The notes below the pieces were generated by a model. It did no database searches. It had not been told where the DNA came from and saw nothing but the letters and a program-made list of their open reading frames with translations. Below are positions 14,605 to 47,835 of a DNA stretch of 64,000 nt, one piece after another. Source of the DNA: Geosiphon pyriformis (Eukaryota; Glomeromycota; Glomeromycetes; Archaeosporales; Geosiphonaceae); the NCBI GenBank assembly GCA_016748015.1, contig JAAOMT010000607.1, positions 696,137-760,136 on the forward strand. The letters are read 5' to 3'. The number at the start of each line of letters is the position of its first letter. Within the stretch, counting starts at the first letter, position 1. Position numbers and translations under genes: made by a program.

Positions 14605-14965
14605 AAATGTGACATAACACAGAATAGCACAATAACATTGGATAATGTATTATAACATAGGATAACATGTTATAACACAGGATAACACAGAATAATGTGC
14701 AATAATATAGGATAATATGTTATAATGCAGGATAACACAGAATAACATGTAATAATGTTAGATAACATGTTATAACATAGAATAACTAGCAATAACATAG
14801 AAAAATAAAGCAATAACAGAAATAACAAAGCAATAGCTAGCAATAGCGAGACAATTGAAAGCAATCCTGTAAAACCAAAAGAATATATAAAAACAAGTAG
14901 TTGTAGAAATTAGAAAAGACAGACAGACAGATAGATACAAATCTCTAGACAAAAATAAAATATCC
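14605..14965. repeat. R3 repeat, imperfect (g/t)ATAACA(c/t)AG array, copy 1
   Basis: Successive short blocks such as GGATAACATGTTATAACACA and AGAATAACATGTAATAATGT repeat imperfectly every ~20-30 bases. They are followed by GCAATAACA blocks and a GACAGACAGACAGATAGATA run. The sequence at 63755-63985 has the same order of blocks at lower GC. Open frames on the minus strand here are low-complexity products of the repeat and not genes. Confidence 0.6.
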
Positions 14966-17084: not shown

Positions 17085-19039
17085 ATGGAACCGGTGGGCA
17101 TTGCTGCTGGTGGTTTTGGGTCCATTTCAGCTGGGTTGGGGACCCAGTCTGGTGTCAAAAATAAGTGTTTGGTTGGTCCTCAATCTTGCGGTGCGTTCTA
17201 TAAGAAGCCAAGAAACCTGTGGCAGTTGACGGTTTGGTGGAGTCGTCTGCTGGTGTTTCAAACATTATGGATGAAAGTGGTGACAGACCTAATATTGGGC
17301 GATCGTGGGCTAGTGAGGTTAACAGCGAAGTGGACAGCATAAGTGGCGTTTCGGACTTGGATAACTTGGAAAACGTTGTCGCTGAGAAAACTAGCTATGC
17401 AGAGTCAGATGCTTCAGGTTTGGACAACGACATGAATGATGCCATGCCTAGGAAGACGCATACTCGCACCTATGTTTTGAACAGTAAGCCGCCACCTCTT
17501 TCTTTCAACATGCTAAGTGATGGTGAAGACACTCTGCCTCTTCCGAGTCCAAAATTTTGTGGGTCCAATCGCCTTCCTCCAGCTGGGTCACATGCTCTGG
17601 AGAAATGGAGTTTTATTTCGTCAAAATTGTTTGCATTGGATATTAAGCTATCTGCCATTCCTGGCAAAACTACTGGTGATAAATTGGTTTGTGTGAAAAA
17701 AATTTTTTATCAGGTTGATGGTTTTGGGGGGGCTTTAACTCCCTCAAAATTTCCTGGAATAATAAGATCATCATTTACATCTGAAAAAAGTTTGTTTAAG
17801 ACGAAGGAAATGGCAATCAGTGAAAAAATATTGGTAAATAATAATCTAAGAAAAGTAAACAGCCATTCAGATTGGGAGGTGATTGTCAAAGAAATCCCAG
17901 TGGATCTTCCCAAATCGGCAATTAAGGCAGTGTTCTCCAGGTTTGGCAAGATTGTTTCAATCAAAGTGCAGCTTATTGGTCTTTGGCAAAAGGCCCTGGT
18001 AGAATATGAATCTTCTGAGATGGCTGATTTGGTCGCAGCTAGATGGTCTGTGCTCATGGAAAAGGATTCGGTCCGAGTGGCAAAAGCAAATATTGATAAA
18101 CAAACGTGGGTATCGAGGGATCAGCATCGGGCTTTACTTTATACTCTTCTAGTTGGCACTAATGCTCATGATCTCTCCAATTTGTTGGAATCATATGGTG
18201 AAAAGACTTGTTATATCGGCCGTAACCCTAGTTCATATGTTCGTGATAGATGTGCTGTAATTTGTTTTGGTGATGAGGCATCCAAATTGGCTGCTATTGG
18301 TACCGTTCCAGTTTTCAGGAATGTGAGTTTGCGTTGGGCTGGTCTTTCTTTGGCCAGTTGTGCTCGTTGTAAACAATTTGGTCATGTTTCGGTCAATTGT
18401 TCCTTGGGTATGTATTCTGGTGTTCGAAGAAGAAGGGTGGTTTCTGAGCAAGATCGGGTTCATCTAGCTGGGATATATAAGAAGAAGTCGGCCTTTGTCG
18501 CTCGTCCAGTTTCTTTTGGTGGGAAAACGTGGGCCCAAGTGGCAGGCAGTTCCTCCTCTCGTGTTGTCTCTTTAGGTGCTCCTGGTGTCAGTTTGGTCTC
18601 TGGTTTGATGGCTTTCTCAATGGATTCCTCTTCGTTTAGTGCCGCTGATCTAGGTGGTCGCCTAGCTGTGCTGGAACGCTCTGTGGAAATTCTCTCAGAC
18701 CAAGTCTCACTCATTTTAAAGAAGTTAAGTTTCGTTGACTTGGTGCCATTGGCGTCTTCTCCCTCAGCTCTTTCTTTGGTGTCTCCAACTGCCGTTGTTT
18801 CAGATATGGATCCGGGTTTGGAGTTGGATGGCACGTTGTTGTCGTCTGCCTCTTCTTCTCCCAATGTTGGTGGGTCGGTTGTTGATTTCAGTCCGAGCAG
18901 TTCTAAGGTTTTGACTGCCAAGATTGGCAGTTTGGAATCGAATATGATGGCTCTTGAGGCTTCAGTTCGCTTGGTCTTGGATAGATTGGATCATCTGCAT
19001 TCTGGATCAGGTTCGTTGGCTTTTCCTCCATCTCAATGA
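17085..19039 (+). pseudogene. LINE C ORF1, gag-like nucleic-acid-binding protein
   Basis: A long frame covers 17204-19039 (~610 codons). The likely ATG at 17085 lies in another frame, so a one-base indel near 17200 seems to separate the N-terminus; a downstream start (ATG at 17264) is also possible. Domains: variable acidic N-terminus; KLFALDIKLS block; RRM-like fold (VIVKEIPVDLPK, then FGKIVSIKVQLIGLWQKALV) at ~17.88-18.07 kb; a second block HRALLYTLLVGTNA...GEKTC; zinc knuckle CARCKQFGHVSVNC (C-x2-C-x4-H-x4-C) at ~18.36 kb; a Ser/Val-rich linker; and heptad-like segments near 18.66 and 18.92 kb that could mediate trimerisation. It should coat the LINE RNA. The stop TGA overlaps the ORF2 ATG. 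Confidence 0.85.
19036..19039 (+). promoter_or_regulatory. ATGA stop/start overlap coupling LINE ORF1 and ORF2
   Basis: The ORF1 stop and ORF2 start share ATGA, preceded by TCTCA. The same four bases in the same position occur in copy B (10946-10949) and copy D (45871-45874, minus strand). Such overlaps are used by some two-ORF LINEs for termination-reinitiation. That mechanism is inferred here only from position and conservation. Confidence 0.65.
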
Positions 19040-22000
19040 GTAGTTTGGTTTGGAAATTTGCTACGTGCAATGTTCGGGGTATCAATGTTTCTGTGAAACA
19101 AGCGGATGTTGTTCGTTGGCATGTGAACTCGGGAAATATGGTTTTTTTTATCACTGAGACTAAGTTGAGGTCCTCTTTTGGGCCATGGATAAAGGATAAG
19201 TTTGATGGAGTGCGAGTATTTTCTTCTGGCTTGAATAAGGGTTTCATGGGTGCTGGGGTTGCGATTGTTATGAACACTTCTTTGGCCCGTCATGTATCTA
19301 AGGTGGAGGAGATTCCTGGTCAGGTTATTTCTGTTCGGCTCCTGTTTAAGGGCAAGCTCTCAGTTACTGTTTTGAGGTTGTATGCTGGTGCCTCCTCTGG
19401 GGCTAGATTTGGTCAGGCTTTTGAAGTTAACACCCTCATTGCAAAGGCGGTCAATTTCAGCAATTTTGTTGTCTTGGGTGGGGACCTTAATAAGAATGGA
19501 TCTGGTAGAAGTGCTAGTTTCAAGTTTTGTTTGAGTTTGGGTTTGGTCAATTCATTTGTTGGTCATCATTTGGCTAATTCTTATACGTGGAGCAATTCGA
19601 GAGGGGTTGGGAAAACGATTGATTACATTTTTGTTGGTGGTAATTTGTCTTCTGCTGTTGCTGGTCATCAAGTTGTCTCTGTTTCGGATTTCTTTGACAC
19701 CGATCACAAGGCAGTTGTGGTTTCAGTCGGTTTGGGTGGGCTTTTAGATATATAATTGAACAGTTTGCACAAGCAGGCAAATAAGGATCGTTGGAAGTTC
19801 AAAATCAGGAATGCTGACTGTGTTGGATGGGCTAAGTTTAAGGATCTCTTGTTAGCTAAACTTTTGTCTTTGGGTGAGGTGTTCTCTGGTGCCGAAATAC
19901 GTGGTGATGTGAATGCTATGTGGGCAGTTCTGGTGGAAGCTGTGGTGGATTCTGCTAATGTGACATTTTCGAGGCATTGGTTTAGTAAATTCAAGTGTTT
20001 GAGAAACAAACATTCTTCTAGGTTTTTTGGTCTGGAATTGTTGGTGGCCAAGATTGTCAAGAAATTTTGCTCTGGTGACTTGCTGGGCACTGATCGTCTT
20101 GTGAGTAAATGGTTGACTCTAGATGACGCGAAGGCTCATGCTTTCAAGGATTTGGTTGGCTCGGGTGTTAAATCTGATGTTGTTGTTAGGCATTTGTTAT
20201 TGGTTCATAGAGATTACAGGAGGTCGAAGATGTTTGAGTCAAAGTTGGCTGAGGAAGCTTCGGTTAGGAAGGCAATTGAGAAGCGCATGGATAATTTCTG
20301 TTCGGATAAGGGTAGTATGATCAGGAGTGTGTTGGAAAAGCCTTTTCACAAGGTTGTGTTGGATCACTTGATAGTTGATGATAATCTGGTTTTGTTGCCT
20401 GAAGAGGTGAAGTCCAGTGTGGATGGAATAATGGAGGGGTGGACGAGGAAATGCTCTGTGCAGTCAGTGCTTCCTGATCTTTGGGCTCGTCAGTACGCAC
20501 CTTTGGACTATGTTAGGGATGATGCTTTTTCAGGTGTTATGAGTGCAATCAGTATGGGTGAGTTACTTTCTGTTGTTGGTGGTCTTTCTGATGGCAAGGC
20601 TGCTGGTTTGTCTGGTGTTCCTAATGAATTATGGAAACATGGTGGTGAGGTAGTTTTGGGGTGCCTGCTGGCGCTGTTTAATAAATGTTTATTGGGTGGT
20701 ATGGTGCCTGTTTTGTGGAAGAGGGCTTGGGTGTCTATGATTCCTAAGTCTTATGACTGGGATGGAGTTCTTACGAACACTCAGCCCATTGCTTTGATTG
20801 AGACTGCCAGAAAGATTCTTTCTAAGATTCTGTCTGACCGTATTTCAATGGCTTGTAGCAAGTTCAATGTTCTTCAGGGTGACAACTTTTCGGTGCTGAA
20901 GGGTACGTCAACACAATCTCCAGTGTTTGCTGTCAGTTTGGTAATTGAGGATGCCATTGAGAAGGATAGGGAGTTATGGTTGGTCTTGCAAGATATGCGG
21001 AAAGCTTACAATTCAGTTGGGTGGCATCATTTAAAAGCTAGTTTGCGGCATGTCAAGATGTGTGAGAGGTTCATAAGATTTTTTGGTGGTATTCATGAGA
21101 ATAGAGTTAATAGGGTGATGACTGACTTTGGTTTGTCTGGTGGTTATAAGGTGCATGATGGGCTGGACCAGAGTGAGGTCTTTTCGCCACTTCTTTGGAG
21201 GATTTTTTACAATCCGCTTTTGTGTGAGGTTAAAAGACACGAACAATTGTGTGAGTACCAGATTGATACTAAGTTTGTTTTGAAATCTGGCAGGATTGAG
21301 AGCAGTAGTGGTTTGACATCGTATTTTTCGGCTGGTGCGTTTGTCGATAATACGATCTGGGTTGGAAATTGTCAGGCTTCTACTCAATATGCTCTGAACA
21401 TTGCCAGTGAATTTTTTGTGATCAATGACATTTCTATTAATAGTGAGAAGATGGTGGCTATTCCCATCAATCAGGGCGTTAAAGTTGCTTCACTAAACAT
21501 TTGTGGTCAGCCAATCTCTATTGCCAAGAAAGGGGAAGCACATCGGTATCTGGGTATTTTTCTGTCGACTGAGGGGCTCTCTAAGCCGAGTGTTGCCAAG
21601 GCTCATGCGGATGTACATTTCTTTGTCAATGTTGTGCTTAAGAAGGCTATTATGGACAAACAATTCTCGTATCTGGTGTCAGCTGTTTTGCAGCCTATTG
21701 TTAGCTATCATACTCAGTTCAGTTTTGTCTCATTTAATGTTTGTCGCAAGTGGGATGTCTTGGTTAGAAAGAGTCTTAGGTCTAAGGCTTGTCTCCTCCA
21801 TGATTTTCCTAATGCTGCTTTGCATCATCCCTCATTGTATGGCCTAAAGCCTTTTGAGCAGGTGCAGTCTGAAGGAAAGGTTGCTGCTTTGATGGCATTC
21901 TCTAATGCTTTTGGCATTCTTGGGCGTTTGTTTAGACATAGGTTTTTGGACCTACAGATTCTTGATTGGGCTCCTTTGGATCTTTTGCAGTTTCCAGTCA

Positions 22001-23721
22001 GGTTGCGTATTAGTCCGGTGAACAATTTTTTGGCTGGGATGGTGAAGATCTTTCTGGGCAATGAGCTTACTTTGGTGAACAACCTTCCCACTGCATTTCG
22101 TAGTCCTGGTCGGTTCCCGTTGTCCTCTGTTCTTGGAAAGTCTCTGTATTTTGATTCGGTCAAATCTCTTAAGCATTTTGGTGTCGCTTTTGGTGATCGG
22201 CTTTTTGATAAGAAAGGTGTTTTGTTGGATTGGAAAACTTTTTGTCATTGGAAGAGGTTGGATCCACGTGGTCCTGTGCCTCATTGGTTCATGGTTTCTT
22301 CTGAGTTTTTGAAAGGTCAGAGTTACTCATTTTCTGGTTCTGTTGGCTCAGCAGAGAAGCTTGGTTTGGACATTTTGGGGTCTGGGGAATTTTCTGCGGT
22401 TAAAGATGGATTGCATGACATTTGGTCAGACTCTTTTGAAGTTTTCACGGATGAGTCTTTGAGGAATGCAGGCTTTGCTGAGGTCGCCTGTGGTGCTGTT
22501 GCATACTTTTCGGTCTTGGATATGAGTATTGGTGTCACTGTTCGTGGTCTTTTGTCATCTACTATGGCCGAGTTACAGACTGTCGCTTTGGCTTTGGAGT
22601 GTGTTCCTTCTTCAAGTACTGTGGTGTTGCGTCTTGACAGCCAGGCTGCCATTGACGCATGTGTGTCTAAGATGTCTTTGGTTGCTCCTGATTTCCGTAA
22701 TCAATGCTGGCTGGAAAGGCGTCATATTTTCAATTTGGTCAGGAATAAGGATCTTAGTGTGAGTTGGGTTAAGGTAAAAGGACACTCTGGGATTTCTGGT
22801 AATGTGAGAGCTGACTTGGCTGCTGGGGCTGCCTCTGGGTCTTTTTTTTCCCTTTGTGCCAATGTGCGTGAACATTTTTTGGTTGCTAAGGGTGTCGCTG
22901 TTTCTGGTAATGCCCGTCATTTTGTCAGAAATATTTTTCGATCAATTCGTTGTGCTCGTTGAGAAGCTGGGCCTGGTTGTGATATAGTTCCGGATGTGAT
23001 GGTTGGTTGCATAGACTGGGTTGTCACGGTGAAGGTGTGGCATCCTAATTCTCATATGCTTGTTGGTTTCACTAGCCGTGCATTCTCATCACTTCGCACT
23101 TATGTTATGAAGACTGTGCACAGGAGGTTGCCGGTGGCCATTAGGAAGAGATTGTATGATAAATGCTATCCTAGTGTGTTGTGTTTGCTTTGCGGTGAGG
23201 TGGAGTTCTCTGACCACATTTTTACTTGTGTTCATGAGTCTGGCATTCGTGGTGAAATTTTGGCGGAGGCTTCTGCTCATTGGTCAGCTTTGTCTGGTGG
23301 TTCCTCTGCTTCTGCTGTGTTGTGGGTTTTGTCTCAATGTTCCATTGATGTTGGGCTGTACACTTTGGTGTGCAAAGGGTTTGTGCTGGAGGAGTGGTAT
23401 GAGGAGGCTTGCGATGTTTTTGAGGATAGAAAGGTGGCCACTGCTAGGATTGTTGATTATGTCAGGTTCGTTGTTGGTTTACATCGTACTAAGGTATGGT
23501 TGGCTAGAGCCAGCCACCGGGTAGTAATGGAGAAGGCTGGTCTGGTCTGTGATGTTGGTGTTGTTTCTGGGCTCCCTTGTGGTGTGTCTTCAGTTTTATC
23601 TGACGGTGTTGTGAGATTGCTTGGTTTGGCCAATTCCTTTGCTGTTAGCTTTGGTCGTCGGAAGTCTTTTTGTTTCTTTTCTGGTCTGGGTGGCAGTGTG
23701 CAGGTAGTTATAAATGTGTAG
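19036..23721 (+). pseudogene. LINE C ORF2 (APE endonuclease, RT, RNase H), two nonsense codons
   Basis: One uninterrupted frame of 1,561 codons apart from TAA at 19753-19755 and TGA at 22960-22962. Comparison with copy D suggests CAA-to-TAA and TGG-to-TGA. Endonuclease (19.04-19.74 kb): TCNVRGIN, ITETKL, GGDLNKNG, IDYIFV, TDHKAV. RT (20.6-21.7 kb): ACS-FNVLQGDNFSVLKG, QDMRKAYNSVGW (motif A), HDGLDQSEVFSPLLW (motif B), FVDNTIW (motif C). The second Asp of motif C is Asn (AAT at 21349-21351), which should abolish polymerase activity. A conserved DWKTF-HWKRLD-RGPVP-WF block (~22.2 kb) precedes RNase H (TDES, AELQ, DSQ, NVRAD). A zinc-binding CLLCGEVEFSDHIFTC lies at ~23.19 kb. Confidence 0.9.
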
Positions 23722-23845
23722 TATTGCCTTGTCTGGCCTGAGTGGCTAGCCACATGTAGAAAGTGCGTGAGTCGCGTTTAGTTTGAGCCTCTTAGTTTGG
23801 TTCTATGTACTAGATAGTGATTGGGCTACACTCGTTAAATGCGTT
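23722..23845 (+). promoter_or_regulatory. Conserved LINE 3' UTR signature (likely RT recognition region)
   Basis: Contains GGCTAGCCACATGTAGAAAG then GTGCGTGAGTCGCG, and further on TAGATAGTGATTGGGCTACA and CTCGTTAAA. Matching blocks in the same order are found in copies A, B, D, E and F, and the terminal block recurs alone near 55.06, 55.23 and 55.91 kb. Conservation between copies whose coding regions differ implies a function, most simply recognition by the reverse transcriptase. Confidence 0.6.
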
Positions 23846-24884
23846 AAATAAAAAATAATTTTAACAAGATATAATTTATTTACTAATTAAAAAAAAATTC
23901 TAAAATTTCAAAAATATTTATAATTATATGTTTTTACATATAATTAACTATTTAAATTGATTTAAAACAAACCAAATTGAATTTATAAAAGCAAATTTGT
24001 TTAAAAAAAATATTTTATACATATTTATAATTAAATTATTACTAATAAAAACCAAATTAATTAATTATATAACAATTTTATTTATAAAAAAGTTTAAACA
24101 ATTATTAAGTTAATAATTTTTTAATTAATATAGTACTTTTAAAAAATATTAACAAAATAATTTTTATAACACATAATTCTTATTATAATTTGATTAACTA
24201 TTATTAAAACATTTTAAGCAATAATTTATATATATATATTTTTTATATTACTATTTTTATTTTTAAAACAAAATTATTTTAATCAATAATATGTTTTATT
24301 TCTTGTAATATAAAATAATCCTGTAAAATTTAATTGTAAAATTTCTAAGAAATGTTAACAATAAAATTATTAAAATATCTTAAAAAACCAATATTTTTTT
24401 TGTTTTTGTGAATAATATATAAAACAACTTTATAAAAATAGTCAAATTTAAGCAATTTATTATTTAAGTAATTTACAAAAAACTTTATCAAAAATATATT
24501 ATTAAATTAAAAAAATTGTAAATTAAAACTATTTTACTATAGCAATTAAAATTAAGATACAATTTATAAAAACATATATTTTAAAATTAAAATAAATAAA
24601 CAGACTATTTATAATAAACTTTATAAGCTTAATTATATAGCTGTTTTATTAAAACATGTATTTTTATTTATTAAATAAGCCAAATAAAACCAATTAGTAT
24701 AGATTTAAAAACATTTTAATTATAATTAATACAAAATAATATTTTTAGATAAAACAATTTTATAAATGTTTTAAAATATTTGTTTAACTTGGTTTTATTT
24801 AAATAAATTTATTGTATTAATAGTAAAACTTTTATTTAAACTTTATATATAAAAAATAATTTGTACATATAAAAAAATTAAAAT

Positions 24885-33100: not shown

Positions 33101-33414
33101 TATTTGTCTGAATTTTTTAAACATATTTTTTTTAATTTACATATTATTCAAAATATATTCTTAAATTTTACCATTATATTAAACTCTTTTATAACAAATT
33201 AATTTATCAGATTTTGTAATAGTTTAAGTAAATTCATAAGAGTTTATAGTTTATATATAAGAATTTAATTATATATAAAAATATGTTTCATGATTTATTA
33301 TAGCAATTTTTTTATTTTAAATATATAATTTATTTTTTATTCTTATTTTTTTTTATTTAATTTATATATTAACTATGATAAATAAATTGATTATTAATTA
33401 ATATAATTTTAATT

Positions 33415-35612
33415 ACACTATTTTAAAGCAGAAAGCTTTGTCAAATAAACAATTTTTCTATTTGGTTTTAGTTATTTTATAGCTTATTGTTAGTTACCAG
33501 ATGCAGTTTTGCTTTGTTTTTATAAGTATATACCAGAAATGAGATGTTTTAATAAAAAAAGACTTAAGTTTAAAGCCAATTTACTTAAAAATTTTCTTAA
33601 TAAGACTTTGTATCACTTATTTCTTTATAAATTAAAGATATTTGAATAATTATAAGCAAAAAACAAGATTGTTTTACTAATTGCATTCTTTAATGCATCT
33701 AGAATTCTTGATTGGTTGTTTGAGTATTATTTTTTGAACTTACAAGTTTTAGAATAGGCTTCAATAAATCCTTTGTGACATTTTATTAAATTGAGAATCA
33801 GTTCTGCAAATAACTTTCTAAATAATAAAATCTTTTTGACTAACTGTTTGTCTAGTATATTTTATGGTTCTGGTCATTTTTCAATGTCAAAAATCTTAGA
33901 TAATTCTTTTTATTTCAATGTGGTTGTTTTTTAAAATGCTTTGATGTTGTCTTTGATAACAAATTGTTAAATAAGCATAAGTTAATTATAAATTGAAAGA
34001 CTTTTTAATATTAAAAAAAACTGAATCCTAGAGATTTAGTACTATTGTGATTTATAAAAGCTTTAAGTTATATAAATAAACTTTTTATTATTTCTAATGA
34101 GATGGTGTTAGCTTCTGGTTGCTTGGACTTCTTTTTTTTAAGTAAATTTTCAAATATTCAAGAGTGTTTACATAATTTATGAGCAAAAAATTTTAATATA
34201 TACATAGATAGTTCTTTAAAACAGTTGGGTATATTAGAAATTGCTGGTAAGACAGTAGTTTATTTTTTAGATGTTGAGATGACCATAAGTGTTAAAATAC
34301 ATAGGCTGTTGTTTTCTATGATAACTAAACTTTAGATAGTTGCTTTGGCATTGGAGTGTGTTTTTTTGTTTTGTTTAGTTGTTATATATATGAACAATAA
34401 AACAACTTTAAATGTATGTACTTTGAAACTTATACTTTGTCAGCTAAACTTTAGAAACAAATGCTGAATGAAAAGGTGTTATATTGTTAATTTAATAAGA
34501 TTTAAAAATATTTTAGTCAGGTGAGTGAAAGTCAAAAATTATTTAGGAGATATTAATAATAATAGAGTTAATATTCTTACATATAAAGCAGTATGTTCTG
34601 GTTTTTTTTTTTTAAAGAGATACATAAGAGATTTATCATAACTGATAGAAAGATTATGTCAGAAAATACTTGTCATTTTGTTTGGAACATTTATTAATCT
34701 GTTTGTTATGCTCAGTAAGAAATTGGTTCTGATATTGGAATTATTAGTAAATCTTTAATTAAGAATATAAATTAAAATGGTACTGCTATAATATAATATT
34801 CAGATTTTCATATGCTATTAGGATTTATAAGTAAGACTTTGATTGTTTTTCATACATATTTAATAAAAACAGTTCATAAAAGACTGCCAACAGCTGTAAA
34901 AAAAAAACTTTATAACAGAAATTATCCAAATATACTGTATTTATTATGTAACAATATTAAATTATTAAATCATGTTTTTATTTATTTAAAGAAGACTAAT
35001 ATGTATTCTAAAATATTACTAAATTATATAAATTTTTGAAAATCTTTGACAAAAAGTTATTTTCTATCTTTTTTTGTAGTATTAAATACACTCTTTTCTG
35101 GAAATTTGGATGTTAGCATTTATATTGTTTTGTATAAAAATTTTGTTTTCAAAGATTGAGTTGATAAAACAGCTTTAATTTTTGATAATAAAAAAAAGAT
35201 GGTGTTAACAATTATTGATTTTGTTTAGAGTTTGGCCAAAAAACATTGAAATGATTTGTGATTGTCTAGAACAAAATTTAAGATAAACATGAAAAAAATG
35301 GCCTGGTTAAAAATGTTGAATTGGTTCTTGTGACTTCATGTAGTGTGTCAAGTTTTTTGTTTATAAAGGTTGTTTAGTTGTTAAGTGTTTTTGAATTTTT
35401 TGTTGTTGGTTTTGGTTTATATAAAGTGTGTACTTTTTTTTAAGTATTGATAATGATACAAGAGTTTATATAAATATATAGTATTGCCTTAATTGGTTTA
35501 AGTGATTGATTATATGTAGCAAGTATATAAATTACATTTAATTAAATTTATCTATTTGTTTCTGTAAATTAGATAATAATTGGACCATACTTGTTAATAA
35601 AAAAATATAAAT
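33415..35612 (+). mobile_element. LINE fossil E, 5'-truncated, deeply AT-decayed
   Basis: Begins in the RT region (ALSNKQFFYLV, cf. AIMDKQFSYLV in copy C) and continues through the post-RT block, RNase H remnants (~34.2-34.6 kb) and zinc-finger region to a 3' UTR. That UTR has AGTATTGCCTT, GATTGATTATATGTAGCAAG, TTAGATAATAATTGGACCAT and an A-rich tail. Nearly every difference from copy C is C-to-T or G-to-A, and stops occur every few tens of codons. The flanks ATATAATTTTAA (5') and ATATAAATTTTAA (3') might be an eroded target duplication. Confidence 0.8.
34812..35039 (+). pseudogene. LINE E ORF2 fragment (zinc-finger region)
   Basis: A 75-codon open stretch reading MLLGFISKTLIVFHTYLIKT, then VHKRLPTAVKKKLYNRNYPN and LYLLCNN...LLNHVFIYL. 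It matches MLVGFTSRAFSSLRTYVMKT, RLPVAIRKRLYDKCYPSVLC and the zinc-binding Cys/His motif of copy C ORF2. The last Cys of the motif is lost. It is only the longest surviving piece of a dead gene. Confidence 0.8.
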
Positions 35613-38324
35613 TTTAAAGCTTTAATTAGATTATAATAGTTAAATAGTTTGTTTAATAAAGCTTTAAAAATATTGTCTTATGTTTATAAATAATATAATC
35701 TTTAATTTGTTTTATTATAGGCATAAAAAAATATAAAAACATAAAACAATAGTTTATTTTACTATAATTACAGTTTTTTATCAAGAGCTTTTTTATAATT
35801 AAAATATTAAATAAGTATTCTTTATATTATAAAACATTTTTTTTTAAAAAAATCTTAATATTATTATAGTAGTAAAGTTTTAACTTTATAAATTAAACAT
35901 TAAAAAAATACACAAAATAATTTTTTTTTTATTTTATTTCAATAGATTTAATAATAATTTTTGATTTAGTTCTTTGGTTTTTTTTAAAAACAAATTAGAA
36001 GATATTATTTTTTTACAATTTATTAAATTGCTTGTAATATTTACAATTCAATTTTAATAATAATTAAATTGCTACTAAAAAAATCTGTTAAATATTATTT
36101 CAATTGTTTAATACTTATTGTTAATAATATAAGTTAAGCAAATAAAATTTTTTTGATATTATTAAAAAACAGCCAAAATATGTAACAAATTTACAGAAAG
36201 TAATTCAATAAAAAAAAATGCCAAATTTTTTTCAAAATTATTATTTATGACAATAAAAAACAGCTTATTAAAAAATAAGTATATTCAAAATATTAGTTAT
36301 TAACTAATATAAAAATTGGAATAATATAATTAACTATTAAAGATTATTCTTTAATATTAAGTAATTTTTTGTTAATTATAATGTTAATAAACATAATAAT
36401 ACTGTTTTACAGAATTAATAACTCTTTTTATGCAGATAATAAATATATTTAAATATAATTTGTCTGTTTGTACAATTAATTTTAAATAGTAAGTATAAAT
36501 TTATATTTAATTAAAAATTAAAATTTATTAAAAACTATTTTATTCTTTTTTTTAATCTATTATTTAGTCTTAATAAGTTAATTTAATATAAAAAAACGAA
36601 TTAATATTTAATAATATTGATAAATTATTAAAATAATTAATAGTAAGTGCTTTTTTTAATTAAAATTATATATAATTTTTTTTACTAATAACAATTTTTA
36701 TACTTAAAAAACTTATTTACTAATTATTATATGAATTTTTTTAAATTAAAAATAATTTAAATCCATATAAAAAAATTTCAGTAAGAAGATTAAAATACAA
36801 ATTAAAACTATATAGTTTTGTTTATATTAAATAATAAATAAAAAATAAAAAAAAATTAAGAATATTATAATTTTTATAATATAAAAAATTTATTTTATGT
36901 TTAATATTCAATTAAATTATTAATAAATAAAACTTTGTAATAAGTGTCCAATCTTTTTTTTATATTTAACTAGTTATAAATAATACATGAATATAAAAAA
37001 ATTATCAAAATATCTATAATTATATTATATATTTTTTAATATATAATTTATTAAATTATTTAAAGACAAAAGTTTTTGCAGTTTATATATATTTTATTGT
37101 TTCTGAAATAGACATCTAAAATTAATATAATAATCATGATGTTTTATTATCTGCAAAAAGTAAAAAAATATTATTATTTTATAAATTATTATTATAATCA
37201 TAAATATATATTTTAAATATATTATTGTTTTTATTTTTTTATCATTTAATACTCGTTTTTTCTATATTAAACCACTCAAAAACTTTTTCAGTTCTAAAAT
37301 ATAAATTATTAATTATCAACTTTTTTAACAAAACTCCAAAATTTTATTATAAAAACAACAAAAATAATATCTTTTATATTTTTTTTAGAGTATTTCTTTG
37401 ATTTATGTATTAATGTTTATAAATATGTGTTTATGTTTCTAATATGTCTTAGCATTAATGTAAACCAAATACATAGATTAATAATTTGGTTAACAAAATA
37501 AAAGTTGAATATTAAAAATAAGCTGGTAAATAATGAGCAATTGGTTGTTAAAATATGTAAAAATTTATTATTATTATTAAATTTAAATTAAAACAATTAT
37601 ATATGCCATTTAAAATAATTAAAAAATACTAATTAAATAAATTATAAAGTTATAGATTTAGAAAAAAAACCTATTAAATATAACAAAATTATTAATAGTT
37701 TGTTTAATTTAAGATTTTAAGTTTATAGTAAAATAAAAAGATAGAAAATTTTAAAGTTGTATATAAAAATAAGCAATAATATTATTAAATTATTAAAAAA
37801 ATACTATTAAATATAAGAGATATATATAAGATAATAGCAATAATAATTATTAATAATAAAAACAAAAGGATATATAATAATTTATAATATATATATTAAT
37901 ATTTATTAATTAAAAAAAACACTATTAAATGTAAAAAAATTAAAAAATAATATTTAAAAATTATAATACTAATAATTTACTAGTTATATTTTTTGTAATT
38001 ATGATTTTTATTTATTTTTTGGTTTTTTTTGCATTATTATATGCAAAAAAAATGTATTTTAAAAATTTATACTTACTTGAATAAATATTTTTATTAAAAA
38101 TAATATTAAATTGATACAATTTTTGATTTATAGAGTTTGAAGTATTTTAAATAAACCAAACTAATTAATAAATAATTAGATTTTTTTTCATTTAATTAAG
38201 TTTAATATTTTGTTAAAGCTTGTTTTTAAAAGTTTTTAATATATAAATTACTATTTAATACAGTATATTTTATTAATTGTTATTTTATTTTATTTTATTC
38301 AAACCAAATATTTTATTAGTTCAT
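35613..38324. other. AT-rich block without genes
   Basis: Near-pure A/T DNA, 2.7 kb. No reading frame, repeat unit or RNA gene could be recognised. It is probably old transposon sequence. Confidence 0.65.
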
Positions 38325-40610
38325 AAAAAACTCTTTGTCTCCTTAATTTTATGACCACAACCAGAACAAAGAGTAAAAAAGCTGCACCTGATATCTGTCC
38401 TGAGATATCTAATAAAATTTCAAACAGAGAAACTCTCTCTGTTGTAAAAGCAACTAGGCAAAACGTTTTAGAAGCCTTTCCCCTACCCAGTAATCATGAT
38501 AAGCTGTCTTTGATAGCCACTGAAGCAACTTCCTTATCTTTGGCTGGTTTCTTACCAGTCAAAGTTCTCTCAAAGAGACACACTTGGGTTAGTCTCAGTG
38601 TTGTCTTCACCCCTACTAAGAGCCCAAAAGTGTTTAATAATAAACCAGTTAACAAGCTGATCTTTCCTTCCATAGTTTTTACATCTGGTGCTGCTAGCAC
38701 CACCTCTTCAAAAAATGGTCAAAAAAACCAAAAGTTCAGAAAAGTGGGGGCAATCATTTGCCTCTGCTATTGTTACACCGAACCTCTTTGTGGTTCCCAA
38801 TAAGATCTTAGATGAGATTTCTATAGCATCATCTGGCACGTCATTCAAGATAGGCCAAGATCAACCACTGGCTGTGTTGCTGAATATGGTGTCTTCCGGC
38901 AGATCATCGCCAATTGTGGAAGCAAAACAATCTCTTCCTGTTGGGTCACCTGTTCTTGGGAACTGGACTGATCAAATGAAAACTGATTCATCTCCTCCTC
39001 TAGTTTCTGGTGCTACTTCTGGTGGTGCTTGAGAAACTATTACTAGTTGTCAAAGATTCGCTGGGTGGATGGCCTCCACTCTGGTGCCTGGTGCTACTTT
39101 TAAGATCAAATTGGCTCATGTTAAGACTGTTTTTCAGTCTGTGCATGGTTTTTTGGGTGCTAAATCTGTTTCAAAAGACAATATGAAGCTTTTCTGTATG
39201 GAGTTTGCTTTTTAACAGTCTTTGGAAGCTGTATTTCTGGTTGAGCTTACAAGCTCTGTTCATTTGGCCACTCTTAAAATTGCCAAGTCTTTGGTGGTTT
39301 CTGAATCTGGTTCCTCTCCTGCTGCTGTTGCACTGTATAATGTACCTTTGAGTGTGTCTGCTGCTGATGTTAAGTTGGCTCTCAATGTGTTTGGTGGTGT
39401 TACTTATGTTGTGCTGAAGTCTGCTGGCATTTGGCAGTATGTGGTGGTTTATTTTGAAAAGTTGAACTCTGCTGTGTCTGCTTTGAAGCATTGATTAGTC
39501 TTAATGGGCAAGAATAGTGTTAGAATCCTCCCTCTGGTAAATCAAAATGAGACTATTTTGTTTCATGATAAGTTTAAGACCAAATTGGTCAACCTTCCCC
39601 CTGGCTGTACTGCCTTTGAAATCAGTAATATGATTTCTCAGATTGGTGGTCAAACATGTTTCATCCCTTATTTTTCTGATTCTGGTTGTCATTCCCAGTT
39701 TGCTTTGGTTACATTTGACTCTCAAGGCGATTTGGATTCTGCTGTAGTCAAGACTGGTACTCTAAGGAAATGCCATATCTGGTGGGAAACTTTTGACTAC
39801 TGGCGCTGCTTTAGGTGTTAAGAAATGAGCCATTTGGCCATGGATTGCAAGATTTTCTCACCTTCCATTCCCAAGATTCCCAAGATTTTCAAGTCTTATT
39901 TTGTGGATTCTGCTTCATATGCCAAGACTACTGCTCCTTTTGGTCTTTCTGAGTTTCCTCCTTTAGTGGCTCCTTCGGCTGCTTCTGCTGCTAATCCTGC
40001 TGTTGGTTCCAGATTAGACTCTTTGGAAAAGCAGATTTCAGATTTGGCTGTTCTGGTTAAGTCTATTGTTGAGCCTATTGGTTTTTTAGTTGCTTTAGTG
40101 TCTTGTCTTCTTGATGATAATGCTGTTAAGACTGTTCAGATTAAGAAAAATATCATTTCTATGAAGAGTGCTGCTAACAATTTTGCTAGCCTCATGGTCA
40201 GAGTTTCCAAGGACATTGCTTGTCTTAGATCTGAGATTGACTTTGGTAATATGAATTATAATAGTATGCTGGCTGCTAAACCTTCTTTTTTAAGTGAGAA
40301 CACTATTGAACATGTTATCACTTTGTGACAAATATCTGATGCTAAGACCAGGGGCAATATTGAGTCTACTAGATTGTTTTTTAGTGAGTTTATTTTTAAC
40401 TCTAGAAATCTGAATGGTATCATTGAGAGAATTCATGGATTGGGGTTGTTCTCACCTACTTTTAATTCAGCGTAGTAAGTCTTTGATTGAGCCGAGTGTC
40501 TGATCACATATAAAAAATGCATAATTTATGCTTATAATGTAATCCCTTCTGTAGTATCATAGTTTAGGTAGTATATGGGTTTCACTCATTAAAAAAATAA
40601 AAAAATAAAA
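38325..40610 (+). mobile_element. Element F: ORF1-only LINE-like element
   Basis: About 2.3 kb. The 5' end CATAAAAAACTCTTTGTCTC resembles the 5' signature of LINEs B, C and D. A single gag-like ORF follows. The 3' UTR has GTCTGATCACATATAAAAAA, then TAGGTAGTATATGGGTTTCA and CTCATTAAA, and a tail of TAAAAAA units (40590-40615). No endonuclease, RT or RNase H sequence is present and no scar of a deletion is visible; the ORF runs into the UTR. It is best read as a non-autonomous element that borrows the LINE ORF2 machinery. A weak AAATATTTT repeat at both flanks may be its target duplication. Confidence 0.75.
38351..40474 (+). pseudogene. Element F gag-like ORF (RRM-like, CCHC knuckle), broken
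   Basis: The start ATG at 38351 gives MTTTRTKSKKAAPDIC. A frameshift lies near 38740, and stops occur at about 39030, 39212, 39492, 39819 and 40326; several replace Trp or Gln. The order matches LINE ORF1: RRM-like block (VALYNVPLSVSAADVKLALN, GIWQYVVVYFEKL), then a GKNSVRI strand, a second block (FKTKLVNLPPGCTAFEI, GGQTCFIP), and a zinc knuckle CFRC*EMSHLAMDC with a stop in place of one residue. A predicted coiled coil (RLDSLEKQISDLAVLVKSIV) follows. The frame ends SPTFNSA at 40474. Confidence 0.8.
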
Positions 40611-40615
40611 AAATA

Positions 40616-41042
40616 TTTTTATATTAAATTTAATATTTTTTATATATATTTTTGTTTTTATTGTAATTTTTTTTATTTTAATTTGTTTTATTTTTTTAAT
40701 AGTATTTTTTTCTTTTTTTATGAAATAAAATTGAAAAAAGTGAAAAAAAACAATTAGAAATAAAGATTAAAATTATTAAATAAAAATAAAAATAAAAATA
40801 ATATAATATGTTTTAATTTTTTTTTAATTATTAGTTAACATCTAATACATAATATTTGTTCTTATATAAAGATAAATTTTGAATAATATTTGATAAAATT
40901 ATATTTTTATTTTTTTATAGGTTGTTTTTATATATATATAAAAATATTAATTAATTTTATAAAAAAATGTTTTTTGTAAGAAATTATTTTTTTATAAAGA
41001 GTTTTTTTATGGAAATCTAACTGTATTAAATTATATTTATAC
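40616..41042. other. AT-rich spacer between element F and LINE D
   Basis: Simple A/T sequence with no feature I can support. Confidence 0.6.
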
Positions 41043-41185
41043 TTTATTTATTTATTTTTTTTTTATTGCTTAACGAATGAGATCCAAACACTATCTAGTA
41101 CTATACATCAAGGAATTGATCTAAACTAGGCGTGAATCATGCACTTTCTACACGTGACCAGCCACTTGGGCCAATCAGAACAACA

Positions 41186-44100
41186 CTACGCAGCTATATG
41201 AACTGACACTGATTCACCTATACCTGAAAAGAACAAGCAAGCCTTGCGAAAACCAAAATGAACACCTAAAGCACTAGTAATGCCAAGTAACCTAACCACC
41301 CCTGCAGAGAACCTCGAAGCCAAACCATGAACCGAGACGATGGCTGAACCATCTAGCGGGATTAGTCCATTCTTCTCCATATACGCACGATGCTTAGCAC
41401 GAATCGACCAGACATCCTTCCTGAAAGCAAGACCAAGAGAGCGCACAAACTTGACAATCTCCAAAACAGCAATCTTGGGGTTGTGAAAGACGGAAACAGT
41501 CTTGCTAAACCATCCATTGAAAACAAAGCCCTTAAAAAGAGCCATAGACACAGAGGAATCAGAGACACTGAATGACAACAGCTGCAATATACCCGAGGAA
41601 GAGTGAGAGGAGCCAGAAAACGCCTTCCAGGACCCTACATGAGAATTCAACAACTGGCACTGAACAGACTCGTCAATCTTGTAAGAGAACACATGATCCG
41701 ACACTTCCACCTTACCACAATACAAGCACAACACGCTAGGATAATGTTTATCATAGAGGTGCTTCCAAATAACAACTGGCAGCTGATAGTACAAAGACTT
41801 CATAAAATAAGTACGCACATTGGACGAACACCTGCTGGTAAATCCTGCAGCCATGTGCAAATCAGGATGCCACACCAATGATGAACGGGGCCAATTGACC
41901 TCAGAAGACAAGCTGCCAACCAAAACCCCAGAACCAGAACCAACCTCCCATTGCACACGACAAATAAAACGATAAATATCATGAACAAAATGCCTCGAAT
42001 TCCCAGAAACAACATCACCATCAGCCGCCAAGAAGTGCTCACTCAAGTGAGGGGGAAGATACCAATTAGAGAGAGAAGCGGCACCAGCGATCGTGTCGGC
42101 ACACTCGTTTTCCGAAACACCAGAATGACCTTTCACCTTGCGAAAACTAACTCTTAACTTCTTACTGCAAATTACGTTGACAATATGATGACGCTTGACC
42201 CAATACTGATTATGAAAATCGGGACACACCAGATCTAACTCCGACCTGCAAGCATCCAATGCCGATTGACTATCTGAGAACAAACAGACAGAGCTTGATG
42301 AGGGAACACACTTCAGAGCTAAAGCAACAGCCTGCAATTCCGCCAAAGTAGACGACATCAAACCTGAAACCCTTACGCCCAAACCCAAACCAATGTCCTC
42401 AAAAAAAACAGCAGCACCAGCTCTACAGCCAACCGTGCCAAGACCACTAAGAGATCCATCTGTATACACTGACAGGCTGCTAGCACCGGTCACCAAGAGA
42501 CGATCACAAATAGACTTAAATTCACCAGACTCAAGAATGTTTGAAGGACTACCATCTCCCAAAACTAGAGACTGATTGCGAGAAGATCTCACACTATTAA
42601 GAAACAAAACAGAAAGCCTGAACCACTCAGGAACTGGATCATGGAGGTCCAATCTCTTCCACTGCTTGAAAGTATACCAATTATAGACAGCACCATGATG
42701 GTCACGAAGTTGATTCACAAAGGCAATACCATACCACCGAAGGAAAGGGAGAAACCTGAGAAACCTTGACTCGCCCAGAACCTCAGACATAGGCACTCCA
42801 CCATGAGACCGAAAGAAACTAACCAAAGAGCCACTCAGAGAAACATTGCAATCGACAAGAACACAAACCATGCCTGCCAGAAAGTTATTAGAAGCACTGA
42901 CACAAATATGAACAAGAGAACACAAAGGATAAACAGGGTGCCAATACAGAACTTGCAAGTCATGAGACCTGTGGGAAAACAAACGACCCAAAATACCACC
43001 AGAGTTCGCAAAACTGACAAGGGAAGCGATCTTGCTTTCAGATTGAACTTGAAAAAATGACTTCAAACTATAAAACAAAGAGTGGTAAACCACATCATTG
43101 GGGAAATCAAGTGGCAAACCAGACTTGAGCTTCAAACCTTTACGAATCAGAGCATCCCACTTCCTGCACACGCCAACAGGAATAAAACTGAACTGAGTTC
43201 TATAGCTGACTATCGGATGCAGAACTGCCGACACCAAATACAAAAACTGCTTATCTGAGACCGCCTTCCTCAACACCAGATTGGTGAAAAAGCGAACGTC
43301 CGAATGTGCCTTAGCCAAGCTAGGCCTCGAAAGACCCTCAGTCGATAGAAAAATGCCCAGATATCAGTAAAATTCACCCTTTTTGGCAATAGAAATGGGT
43401 GAACTGCTAATAGAAAGAGAGGGACTACTGACTCTGCTATTGATAGGAATGGCTACCGTTTTGTCGTTGTTAATAGAAATGTCATTGATAAAAAAAAATT
43501 CACTAGCAACATCGAGAATATGTTGAGTAGCCGTCTGACTGCTACCAACCCAAATCGTATCATCAACAAAAGCACCAGTGGCAAAAAAAGAAGAAAACCC
43601 AGCCTGGGATTCAGAACGACCATTCTTGGAAACAAAGTGAGAGTTCAACCTATACCCACATACACTCTCCTGTCTTTTGACTTCGCACAAAAGAGGATCA
43701 TAAAATATGCGCCAGAGAAGAGGAGAGAAGACCTCTCTCTGGTCCAAACCATCGTGCACATGGTAACCGTTCATCAGTCTAAAATCAGTCATAACTTGGT
43801 TGGTACGATCTCTATGAATACCACCAAAAAACCAAATAAATTTGCTACACATCTTAATCCTAACCAAACTTTTCTCGAAATGCTCCCAGCCAACTGAGTC
43901 ATACGTCTTCCGCATGTCCTGCAGAACCAGCCATAGCTCCCTGTTTTTTTCCAAAGCATCTTCGACCACCGAACCAATTGCAAAAATAGAGGACTGGGTT
44001 GTCATACCCTTCAAAACTGAGAAATTAGCCCTTCGAAGCATGTCAAAAGTACTGCATGCCAAAGAAATCCTGTCCGAGAGTATCTTGGAAAGAACCTTGC

Positions 44101-45874
44101 AAGCCGTTTCGATCAAGGCAATAGGACGTGTGTTCGTTAAAACACCTTCCCACTCATACAGTTTTGGAATCATCGAGACCCATGCTTCCTTCCAAGGGCC
44201 GGGCACTGACTCACTAGACAAACAAGAGTTCAAGAGCACCAACAACATATCCAAAACTGACCTATCACAATGTTTCCAAAGCTCATTTAAAATACCCGAC
44301 AAACCAGCCGCTTTACCCTCCGGAAGATCAGAAATCACCCCAAGGAACTCATCATACCCAATTGAACACATGACACCAGAAAAAGCCTTGTCAAAAACAT
44401 ACTCCAGCGGCTGATATTGGAAGCGCCAATCATTCAATACATTATCGACCACCCGACGCTTCCTAGTCCAACCTTCCATAATTGCATCTACCTTGGATTT
44501 GACCTGCTCAGGTTCCAAAATCAATTCGTCATCAACCACCAAATGATTCAGCACAATCTTATGAAATAGGTGCTCCAACACACTTTTTATTGTATGACCT
44601 TTATTTACCTCAAAGCTTTCCATCCTCTTGTCTATCGCAGATCTGATGCATGCCTCTTTAGCACTCTGAGATTCAATGAACTTGGACTTTCGATAAGATT
44701 TCCTGGCACCAAAAAGAGCAGAACAAACACGACCAGATTCCACACCAGAGTCCACCAGATCCTGAATGACCAAAGCCTTGACACTGTCCAGAGAAGCCCA
44801 ACACCTCATGAGAGAAGCAAAATCCACAGCACACCTCACACGAAATGCCTTAATAATTTTTGAAACCAGAAGCTCCAACTTGTGGAACCTCGATGACTCT
44901 TTGGTAAAGACACTATCAAATTCCTTGAACCACTTTTTCTTGAACACTTCATTAGCCGAAAGAATCATTATTCTGCGAACAACATCTCACATTGTGTCCA
45001 AATCCAAAAACCTCATAAAAACAGCAAACTCATCTGAGAACATTGCTGCATTAGCCAATGTGGCACACTTAAAATCGATCCATTTACTCTCATCAGCACC
45101 CTTGAAATCAAACTTCCATCTGTCTCTGTTTGCTTGCTTGCGAAAAGAGCACAATTGCATATCCAGAAGCCCACCCAGACCCAAAAACACTAAGACAGCT
45201 TGATGATCCATGTCAAAGTGCTCACTGACACCCGATACATTACGATGTACCATCGCATTGACCAGATTTGGAGAGACAAACACGTAATCAATTGTTCTTT
45301 TGACTCCCCTAGAATTCTCCCAAGTGGGCATTTTCACAGCCGGGCTCCCGACCAAAGAGTTAATCAATCCCAAATCAAGGCATTTTTTGAAACTCGCACA
45401 CTTATGAGAGCCGTTTTCATTAAAATCGCCACCGAGGATAACAAAGGAGGACTTGTTAACAGCCTTTGCGATGATAGAGTTGATTTCACCTGCCTGAAAG
45501 AACCGGACCACCGAAGAAGCACCAGCATACAGTCCCAAAATTGACACAGAGAGCCTGTTCTTGAAAAGTAACTTGATAGACAACAACCGACCCAGGACCT
45601 CAGACATCTTGCACACATGTCTCGCCAAAGAAGAGTTCATAACCACCGCCACACCAGCACCCAGATACCCAGAATCCAAACCAGTAGTAAACACCCGAAT
45701 CCCATCAAACTTGTCAATGATCCAGGGCTGAACCTTATCTTTTAACTTAGTTTCAGTAAAAATCGAAATTGAATTGTCCATGTCCTTATGCCAACGAATG
45801 ACATTACCCTGCTTCGCAGGGTTGTTCATTCCTCTAACATTGCATGTAGCGACTTTCCATACTAATTCACTCAT
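41186..45874 (-). pseudogene. LINE D ORF2 (APE endonuclease, RT, RNase H), two nonsense codons
   Basis: One frame from 45874 to 41186 with TGA at 44987-44989 (family has Trp after Met) and TGA at 43364-43366 (family has Arg in GEAHRYLGIF). Endonuclease: TCNVRGMN, TETKL, GGDFNENG, IDYVFV, MDHQAV. RT: NFSVLKGMTTQSS, LQDMRKTYDSVGW, HDGLDQREVFSPLLW and an intact FVDDTIW motif. RNase H: YTDGSLSG, AELQ, DSQ, NECAD, giving the four acidic residues. Zinc-binding CLYCGKVEVSDHVFSY has the last Cys replaced by Tyr. Of all copies here this one keeps the best catalytic residues, but it is cut by stops. Confidence 0.9.
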
Positions 45875-47670
45875 TGGGAAGGGGATTGGAAGTTCGCACC
45901 ACCAGTCAAAGCCAGACTATCGAAACGAGCGGACAAGATCAACACAGATTTGGAGAGGCTCTCCAACATATTTTCCAACTTGACAACATGGAGGGACGTG
46001 AATGAATCCACAATCATAGTAAACTCAAGGCTATCAGTCATATTTAAGTCCATATCCAATGTCACATCACTTTCTGAATTCTGTGGTGGGGCGACTACCG
46101 GCAGCCGGCATCCGTGACCAGGCTGGGAAACCACCAGCACAAGCAAATCTAACCTCTTGGCCAACCCATCAATTTGTTTTGCGAGACTGACGAGACCATT
46201 CTCAATACTGACCAGTTTTTTTTCCAGATCTTTTGCAACAGGAGGAGTAGGTTTACCATCAACGACGGAACCAAAACTTGCCTTATTACCAGAGAGAGAT
46301 GGAGCAGAGGGAGTGCTAACTACCGACGCCCAAGTTTTACCACCAAAAGCCAAAGGACAAGAGATAGATGCAGATCTTTTTGCATAAATTTTCGCCAATC
46401 TGGATTGGTCCAGAACCGAAAGGTGAGCCTTTCTGCCTCCTGCAAACCCAGCACCCTTGACTGTTCTGCAACCAAGAGAAGTATGACCAAATTTCTTACA
46501 AACCGCACATGAAGCTAAAGAAAGACGGGACCAACGGAGACCAAAGCCCTTTATAACTGGAGTCATTGCCATTGCATTAATTAATTCCACTTCCGAGCTA
46601 AAACACACAGTGGCACAGCGGGCGCAAGAATAACTGACGGGATTGCGATCGATGAAGCAGGTTTTCCCACCAATAGAACCAATAAAATCCCACAAATCAT
46701 GAGCAGTGGTTCCCATGGGAAGAGTATATAGCAAAGCCCTAAAATTATCTCTGGCATCCCACAATTGTTTGTCAATATCAGTCCTGGCCACCCGAATCGC
46801 GTCCTTCCCAATGAGGATAGACCACTTAGAGGCCAGAAAATCAGCCTGGTCTTGATCTTCCAATTCGATGACCGCTTTTTGCCATAAACTCACCAGCTGC
46901 ATTTTGATCGACTTAATGATGCCAAATTTGGCCACAGCCACACACACAGCCTCCAAAGATGTTCCCACAGGAATTTCTTTCAGCACAATTGCCCGATTTG
47001 TACGATTGTTGACAGGGCGCTTGAGATCAGTGTTTACCACAACACCACGGTCATTAGCCAGATTAGCTGCAGTTATCATCGCCTCTTTAGAAGTGAAAGT
47101 AGCCCAAATGATTCCACCAAATTTTGAGAGGGTAGAGGCCTCCCCAAAACCATTTACACCTGAAAAGATTTTCCTGACAAAATTGACTTTTTCCTGAGAG
47201 GATTTACCTACCACCGCCACCAGATCAATATCCAAAGCGAAGGACTTGCAAACAGGCACCTGAACGGATAGCTTGACTGGAAAAGAAGGTGGGAAAAGAA
47301 GAGATTCATCCAACACATCACCATCCACATCGACAGCACCATAATCAATCACACCCAATGGCTTCCCTAATACCTTTTTGGTCTTTACACACAAACCTCT
47401 AGGCGTTTAATCAGGATCCCCTCCCACGAAAGGACCATCATCACCATAGTCCACACTGGTTTCTTCCACCAAGCATTCTTCCTCCATGTCAATACTCTCA
47501 GATTCCGTAGTGTTACCAGTCTCCGAATCCCATGAACAAACACCAGGAACTTCAGCAGCAACCCTTCCGTTATCAATACTCTCTGCCAACACACCTCCCT
47601 TCCTCTTTTTCCTTGAAGCAACCACTTTAAAACCACTCTCAGAACCCGAAACTTTAGCAGTCTTTTTCAT
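45871..47670 (-). pseudogene. LINE D ORF1, gag-like protein, one nonsense codon
   Basis: ATG at 47670 (MKKTAKVSGSESGFKVVASR). A single in-frame TAA at 47407-47409 splits it into 87 and ~510 codons. Basic N-terminus (RKKRKGG), acidic stretch, KSFALDIDLVAV block, RRM-like domain (AIVLKEIPVG..., FGIIKSIKMQLVSLWQKAVI), second block (FRALLYTLPMGTTAHDLWDF, GGKTCFI), zinc knuckle CAVCKKFGHTSLGC at ~46.5 kb, and two heptad-like segments (LEKKLVSIENGLVSLAKQID; LENMLESLSKSVLILSARFD). The stop overlaps the ORF2 start as ATGA. Confidence 0.88.
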
Positions 47671-47835
47671 AACAGTGATAACAGAGCCAACAGTGGCCTC
47701 GTAATCAAAAAACAGTTTTGATTTATCGTACTGAATGGTAAAAAAACTTCTTTCGAAAAAACTTTTGACTCTTTTTTGGGAATTTTGGACAAAGGAGAGA
47801 AAGAAGTTTTTTTTTTTTTTTTTTTTTTATTTATT

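What the first reader, a model, noticed from the sequence alone, without database searches (positions are those of the whole stretch)
38325..40610. A gag-only retroelement with LINE-like ends
Element F carries one ORF with the domain order of LINE ORF1 (RRM-like, second globular block, CCHC knuckle, coiled coil) and 5' and 3' end signatures resembling those of LINEs B, C and D. It has no endonuclease, RT or RNase H and no visible deletion scar. If reproducible in other copies, this is a family of non-autonomous elements that supply their own RNA-binding protein but borrow ORF2 in trans, unlike SINEs, which supply none.
Basis: partly seen in the sequence, partly recalled or inferred. Interest (0 to 1): 0.8.

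Follow-up and report, generated by a model that had tools for sequence, protein, structure and literature searches.

The report
Gag-only LINE-like retroelement family
The 2.3-kb stretch is a decayed member of a large family of mobile elements that carry their own RNA-packaging protein but no copying enzyme, and that end in the same folded RNA tail as the neighbouring LINE elements, whose enzyme they most likely borrow.

Summary
The finding holds up. The window copy (38325-40610) is degenerate, but the host genome (124.7 Mb, AT-rich, name not given) holds at least ~120 relatives. They start at the same 5' base (AAAAAACTCTTTGTCTCC), end at the same A-rich 3' point, sit in unrelated AT-rich flanks and show an excess of short target-site duplications. 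Three of the 37 F1 copies held keep a 701-708-codon ORF1 (RRM, CCHC knuckle, coiled coil). None of more than 50 copies checked at the 3' side has endonuclease, RT or RNase H.

ORF1 stops directly on a ~120-nt 3' tail homologous to the tails of all five LINEs in the window; F and LINE tails share a covarying RNA fold. F ORF1 is not a recently truncated LINE ORF1: F and 22 sampled LINE ORF1s fall on opposite sides of a 100/100 branch. At least three subfamilies exist, mosaic in their 3' half. Differences fixed between them are biased to synonymous sites, so the protein was maintained while copies multiplied.

The working model is HAL1/HeT-A-like: own gag, borrowed ORF2, tail recognition as in LINE/SINE pairs. 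Trans-mobilisation is inferred. An unseen autonomous F-type LINE is not excluded. New variant of a known kind.

The parts
38325..40610 (+). element F (subfamily F1), whole degenerate copy
   Evidence: full-length matches with the same ends across the genome at 88-90% identity; 62 ORF1 matches
38325..38347 (+). 5' start signature shared with LINEs B, C and D
   Evidence: motif occurs only at the four element starts in the window
38351..40475 (+). ORF1 (gag-like) coding region, broken in this copy; 701-708 codons in intact copies
39042..39284 (+). N-terminal globular block shared with LINE ORF1s
   Evidence: alignment with LINE C and D ORF1; coordinates mapped through
39312..39794 (+). tandem RRM-like region
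   Evidence: RRM_1 E 7.5e-7 in intact copy L043, two stretches; mapped through
39804..39851 (+). CCHC zinc knuckle (degenerate in this copy)
   Evidence: zf-CCHC E 0.0027 in P0001 aa 494-509; mapped through
40047..40475 (+). C-terminal coiled-coil-like region of ORF1 (module a); replaced in subfamily F3
40473..40593 (+). structured 3' tail, including the ORF1 stop codon as its first bases
   Evidence: RNA model hit 88 bits; stop at the tail start
38306..38314 (.). possible left copy of target-site duplication (AAATATTTT)
   Evidence: weak on its own, in excess across 37 copies
40611..40619 (.). possible right copy of target-site duplication
41055..47815 (-). LINE D: ORF1, endonuclease, RT, RNase H; its clade carries the closest tails and is the likely enzyme donor
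   Evidence: Pfam hits; tail 41069-41188; D-like RT family with >6000 first-look candidates
16952..23850 (+). LINE C, with the same kind of 5' start and 3' tail
8959..16809 (+). LINE B, degenerate, with the same kind of 5' start and 3' tail
5127..8083 (-). LINE A, 5'-truncated, with the same kind of 3' tail
33405..35598 (+). LINE E, truncated, with the same kind of 3' tail

Best explanation
F belongs to a high-copy family of non-autonomous LINE-like retrotransposons that encode only ORF1p (gag). Proposed cycle: F RNA starts at the conserved AAAAAACTYTTTGTCTCC end and is translated into a ~707-aa RRM/CCHC/coiled-coil protein, which packages its own RNA. The ORF2 protein (EN-RT-RNase H) of a co-resident LINE, most likely of the D clade, binds the shared 3' tail fold and copies the RNA into AT-rich target sites by target-primed reverse transcription. 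Shown here: the family, common ends, lack of ORF2, intact gag in some copies, synonymous bias between subfamilies, target duplications, and the shared covarying tail. Inferred: transcription, protein function, cis packaging, and ORF2 supplied in trans. Likely origin (inferred): an ancient LINE whose ORF1 became joined to the last codon and stop of ORF2, removing the rest of ORF2.
For: About 120 distinct places: full-length F1/F2 matches, F1 tails with ORF1 attached and F3 copies. Common ends. No ORF2: the 37 F1 copies held and 16 further ones run straight from ORF1 into the tail. Three open frames. Fixed differences favour synonymous sites: F1 vs F2 28 non/33 syn against 42.0/16.5 expected; F1 vs F3 26/47 against 49.9/19.8; 0 of 2000 permutations each. 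Variants within F1 look neutral. Target duplications: 28 of 37 copies score >=10 against 9.2 expected with swapped flanks. Tail: 94.0% of cells paired; 72 cells changed on both sides against 30.1 shuffled; slid controls 30-38% paired. One base triplet covaries by group: CAC/GUG in LINEs, UAC/GUA in F1, AGC/GCU in F2/F3. Stop codon of the last ORF at the same tail position in F and LINEs. D-like RTs abundant.
Against: No functional data. Most copies carry stops, and the closest pair differs by 6%, so present activity is doubtful. No LINE tail reaches F's own level of identity; the best LINE tail is 70% identical to F1 tails and 77-79% to F2/F3 tails. Only about 25 LINE ORF1s were examined out of thousands of candidates.
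Confidence: 0.83

Rival explanations
1. F elements are internally deleted derivatives of an autonomous LINE with an F-type ORF1 (a TAHRE-like master) that is rare, unsampled or extinct; selection on ORF1 acted in that master.
For: HeT-A has such a relative (TAHRE; PMC5537684). Genome searches score only the best candidates, so a rare master could be missed. The stop placement suggests an ORF1-to-ORF2-end fusion.
Against: No F copy checked at its 3' side is followed by ORF2. The LINE ORF1s examined (about 11 from the window, one F2/F3-like-tailed LINE and flanks, 14 at RT-anchored loci of C and D type) are all LINE-clade; 22 of them placed in a tree. F1, F2 and F3 share one junction and their tails form one clade (98/97), arguing against repeated deletions.
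Confidence: 0.25
2. F is a one-off deletion product of a single LINE, with no life as a family.
For: The window copy is degenerate and sits 0.6 kb from LINE D.
Against: More than 100 copies share ends in different flanks; ORF1 is only 21-32% identical to LINE ORF1s.
Confidence: 0.02
3. F behaves like a large SINE: the ORF is a passenger and only the tail matters; F RNA is packaged by LINE ORF1p.
For: Tail sharing with LINEs is as in stringent LINE/SINE pairs (PMC4176376). Most copies have lost the frame.
Against: Fixed differences between subfamilies are biased to synonymous sites; the ORF1 is divergent but keeps RRM and CCHC.
Confidence: 0.12

Closest known systems
HAL1 (half-L1) of mammals
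   Same: LINE-derived element encoding only ORF1p, non-autonomous, RT in trans; HAL1s arose several times (PMC5753468)
   Different: HAL1 derives from L1 (relaxed, poly-A type). F's ORF1 is separated by a long branch from all sampled LINE ORF1s of its genome, F has mosaic subfamilies, and it shares a structured tail with LINEs.
HeT-A of Drosophila telomeres
   Same: gag-only non-LTR element, far more abundant than its autonomous relative, depends on another element's RT (PMC5537684)
   Different: HeT-A transposes only to chromosome ends in head-to-tail arrays; F is dispersed, with target-site duplications. An autonomous gag relative (TAHRE) is known for HeT-A; none has been seen for F.
Stringent-type LINE/SINE pairs (UnaL2 and its SINE, ZfL2)
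   Same: partner elements share a 3' tail with a stem-loop recognised by the LINE ORF2 protein (PMC4176376)
   Different: SINEs encode no protein; F encodes a gag-like ORF1, and its shared tail is longer, with six helices.
LINEs with ORF1 (RRM, CCHC) and ORF2 (APE-type EN, RT, RNase H): window LINEs A-E
   Same: ORF1 domain order, 5' start motif, 3' tail fold, stop codon at the tail start
   Different: F has no ORF2; its ORF1 has a longer N-terminal region and its own C-terminal domain

Membership tests
HAL1-type half-LINE | encodes ORF1p only, no EN/RT | tested here: met
HAL1-type half-LINE | ORF1 derived from an autonomous LINE of the same genome (L1 in HAL1) | tested here: not met
   F and 22 LINE ORF1s on opposite sides of a 100/100 branch; not all LINEs sampled. 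So F works like HAL1 but is not filed as HAL1.
HeT-A | gag-only, enzyme from another element | tested here: inconclusive
   gag-only met; use of another element's RT inferred from the tail
HeT-A | insertion only at chromosome ends, without target duplication | tested here: not met
   dispersed copies at interior contig positions and target duplications
SINE | short, no protein encoded | tested here: not met
   2.3 kb, ORF1 with synonymous bias, RRM and CCHC
SINE | RNA polymerase III promoter | not tested
   no A/B-box or tRNA scan was run on F
Stringent LINE/partner pair | 3' tail sequence and fold shared with a LINE | tested here: met
Stringent LINE/partner pair | partner ORF2p binds the tail and mobilises the element | not testable with these tools
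   needs a retrotransposition or binding assay
Autonomous LINE (EN-RT) | ORF2 with EN and RT | tested here: not met

The most novel reading that the evidence does not exclude
F is an old, self-standing lineage of gag satellites: it has long evolved its own RNA-packaging protein independently of the LINE ORF1s, splits into subfamilies by exchanging ORF1 C-terminal modules, and lives only by matching its RNA tail to the ORF2 of whichever LINE clade is active. The ORF1 partnership would be private and the ORF2 shared.
Probability: 0.4. Interest if true: 0.75.

Novelty: new variant of a known kind. Interest (0 to 1): 0.58.

Why it matters
Gag-only LINE relatives are known mainly from mammals (HAL1) and fly telomeres (HeT-A). 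Here is a large, diversified family in an AT-rich genome, next to probable enzyme donors with the same RNA tail. It makes a standing question testable: why would an element that borrows the polymerase keep its own packaging protein? The covarying tail predicts which base pairs the LINE enzyme needs, with lineage-specific compensations that could be swapped in an assay. For genome annotation, such families may be left among unclassified repeats because they lack RT.

Tried and rejected
(1) Tail capture: F1 and F2 tails differ more than their 5' halves, which at first suggested recruitment of tails from different LINEs. The tail tree puts all F tails in one clade (98/97) with F1 on a long branch, so separate captures are not supported. 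(2) Two flanking pieces (L009, L037) that looked like distant F families at 50-57% identity were heavily AT-drifted F copies. (3) Genome search by RVT_1 returned top hits that look like other classes of RT and was not useful. (5) Rfam: no match in 38300-41300. (6) The HAL1 primary paper is not in the held library. (8) Shared variants within F1 were not used as internal-branch changes: they are mostly recurrent C>T/G>A. (9) Segmental duplication: adjacent flanks are mostly unrelated, and the few matching pairs look like other repeats.

Full report
1. What is in the window. F lies at 38325-40610 on the + strand. It starts with AAAAAACTCTTTGTCTCCTTAATTTTATG and ends with ...TTAAA plus an A-rich tail. 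The gag frame of this copy is broken (ORFs of 150 and 167 aa). The same 64 kb holds five LINEs: A (8083-5127, -), B (about 8960-16809, +), C (about 16954-23850, +), E (33405-35598, +) and D (about 47815-41055, -). LINE D encodes ORF1, endonuclease, RT and RNase H (Pfam: Exo_endo_phos 1e-6, RVT_1 2.5e-12, RNase_H 3e-15). The motif AAAACT(T)CTTT[CG]T[CT]TCC, allowing one mismatch, occurs exactly at the starts of B, C, D and F and nowhere else in the window.

2. F is a family. A search of the host genome (124.7 Mb, 406 contigs, unnamed) with F found 40 scored near-full-length matches at 87-90% identity, with 1391 first-look candidates. The intact protein found 62 ORF1 places, with 5616 candidates. 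Further searches and classified tails bring the distinct places seen to about 120 (counted by hand from these lists). This is a lower bound, since each search scores only the best candidates. Copies share both end points; flanks differ and have 14% GC against 40% in the element. About 30 of the 40 best tail matches belong to full-length copies. Flank matches expected of target-site duplications are in excess: 28 of 37 copies reach score 10, against 9.2 expected when flanks are swapped between copies. Clear cases are L005 AAATTAGATTAG, L011 AAACAATATAAG, L014 AACTCTTAAT and L018 ACAACTCAAA. The 37 F1 copies differ pairwise by 9.6% on average (range 6.1-12.4%), mostly by C>T and G>A, so amplification is not recent.

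3. The protein. Three copies keep an open frame of 701-708 codons from the conserved ATG. RRM_1 scores above its gathering threshold in L043 (E 7.5e-7), and zf-CCHC is just below threshold in L004 (E 0.0027). The alignment with LINE C and D ORF1 keeps the order N-terminal block, RRM-like region, CCHC, coiled-coil region, at 24-26% identity. Changes confined to single F1 copies look neutral (non/syn ratio 0.89 of expectation), as expected after insertion. Differences fixed between subfamilies are biased to synonymous sites: ratio 0.33 for F1 vs F2 and 0.22 for F1 vs F3, with 0 of 2000 permutations reaching the observed synonymous count in either. F2 vs F3 is weaker (0.64, 100 of 2000). F2 and F3 rest on three and two copies. 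So the protein was constrained in the multiplying lineage.

4. No ORF2, and the relation to LINE ORF1s. Every F copy checked at its 3' side runs from ORF1 straight into the tail: the 37 F1 copies held and 16 further copies. About 25 LINE ORF1s from this genome were examined: the window, flanks of F copies, one LINE with an F2/F3-like tail (L109), and 14 loci picked by their distance from C- or D-type RTs. All resemble LINE C or D ORF1 and, where the match to F was measured, it was only 21-32%. In a tree of the RRM-CCHC region, 22 LINE rows and 7 F rows are split by a 100/100 branch of about 1.8 changes per site. The tree has no outgroup, so it shows separation, not which side is older.

5. Subfamilies and mosaics. 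F2 (L051-L053, L062) has the same architecture, with ORF1 73% identical to F1. F3 (L087+L078, L088+L082) keeps the 5' part of F but has a very different ORF1 C-terminal module, 22% identical to that of F1 (E 2e-12), and an F2-like tail. Net divergence between subfamilies is 0-0.07 over the first 1.3 kb and jumps to 0.16-0.22 around position 1520. So 5' and 3' parts have different histories, as template switching or recombination would give.

6. The tail. About 120 nt are shared by F1, F2, F3 and LINEs. The fold has six helices; 94.0% of cells pair, against 88.2% in column shuffles and 30-38% when partners are slid. 72 cells are changed on both sides, against 30.1 in shuffles. The shuffles ignore relatedness and the structure came from the same alignment, so the controls are supportive rather than exact. 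The clearest sign is one triplet that changes as a block: CAC/GUG in LINEs, UAC/GUA in F1, AGC/GCU in F2 and F3. A covariance model of the tail hits the ends of all six elements of the window and nothing else there. The stop codon of the last ORF (ORF1 in F, ORF2 in LINEs) is the TAG that opens the tail, usually after a valine codon. In the tail tree the branch to F is short (0.13) and F falls on the D-like side of a 99/99 split from C-like LINEs, while in ORF1 the F branch far exceeds the LINE C-D distance. The tail therefore changed much less than the protein, or was acquired later from a D-like LINE. Either fits dependence on a D-type enzyme.

7. Mechanism. Shown: a family with fixed ends, an intact gag in some copies, no enzyme genes, target duplications, and a tail fold shared with resident LINEs. 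From the literature: stringent LINE ORF2 proteins recognise the cognate 3' tail, and SINEs exploit this (PMC4176376). Inferred: F RNA is packaged by F ORF1p and copied by D-clade ORF2p.

8. Comparison. HAL1 encodes only ORF1p and is a non-autonomous derivative of L1 (PMC5753468). HeT-A encodes gag without RT and most likely uses TART or TAHRE RT (PMC5537684). F works like these but is a member of neither: its ORF1 is not derived from any sampled LINE of its genome, and it is not telomere-bound. A published description of this family was not found in the few literature searches run, which is weak evidence; most subscription papers are not held. A Rhizophagus repeat paper was consulted as a lead only; the host here is not identified.

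9. Limits. Present activity is doubtful.

Noticed in passing
window:14607-15663: LINE B's RNase H region is interrupted by about 1 kb without LINE similarity, probably a nested insertion.
   Followed up: no
L030 3' flank; L004 3' flank; L053 3' end; G000:C357:6046-10661: F copies and LINE starts often lie close behind another F tail, including F pieces head to tail within a few bases at C357; insertion may prefer A-rich tails.
   Followed up: partly
L037 flanks, L009 3' flank: Older F copies are strongly AT-drifted (C>T and G>A), reaching 50-57% protein identity; a methylation- or RIP-like process may act on repeats.
   Followed up: partly
window:53262-54110: ORF of 282 aa with an RGS domain match (E 2e-8), a likely host gene exon.
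   Followed up: no
L016 5' flank 826-1414 (-): Very degenerate F-like N-terminal sequence with an inserted asparagine-rich stretch, 29-36% identical to F; either an old copy or a further subfamily.
   Followed up: no
L030 and L031 3' flanks: The two downstream flanks are 86% identical over 193 bp; in L030 a LINE 5' end (CTTCTTTCTCTCC) lies directly behind the F tail.
   Followed up: no
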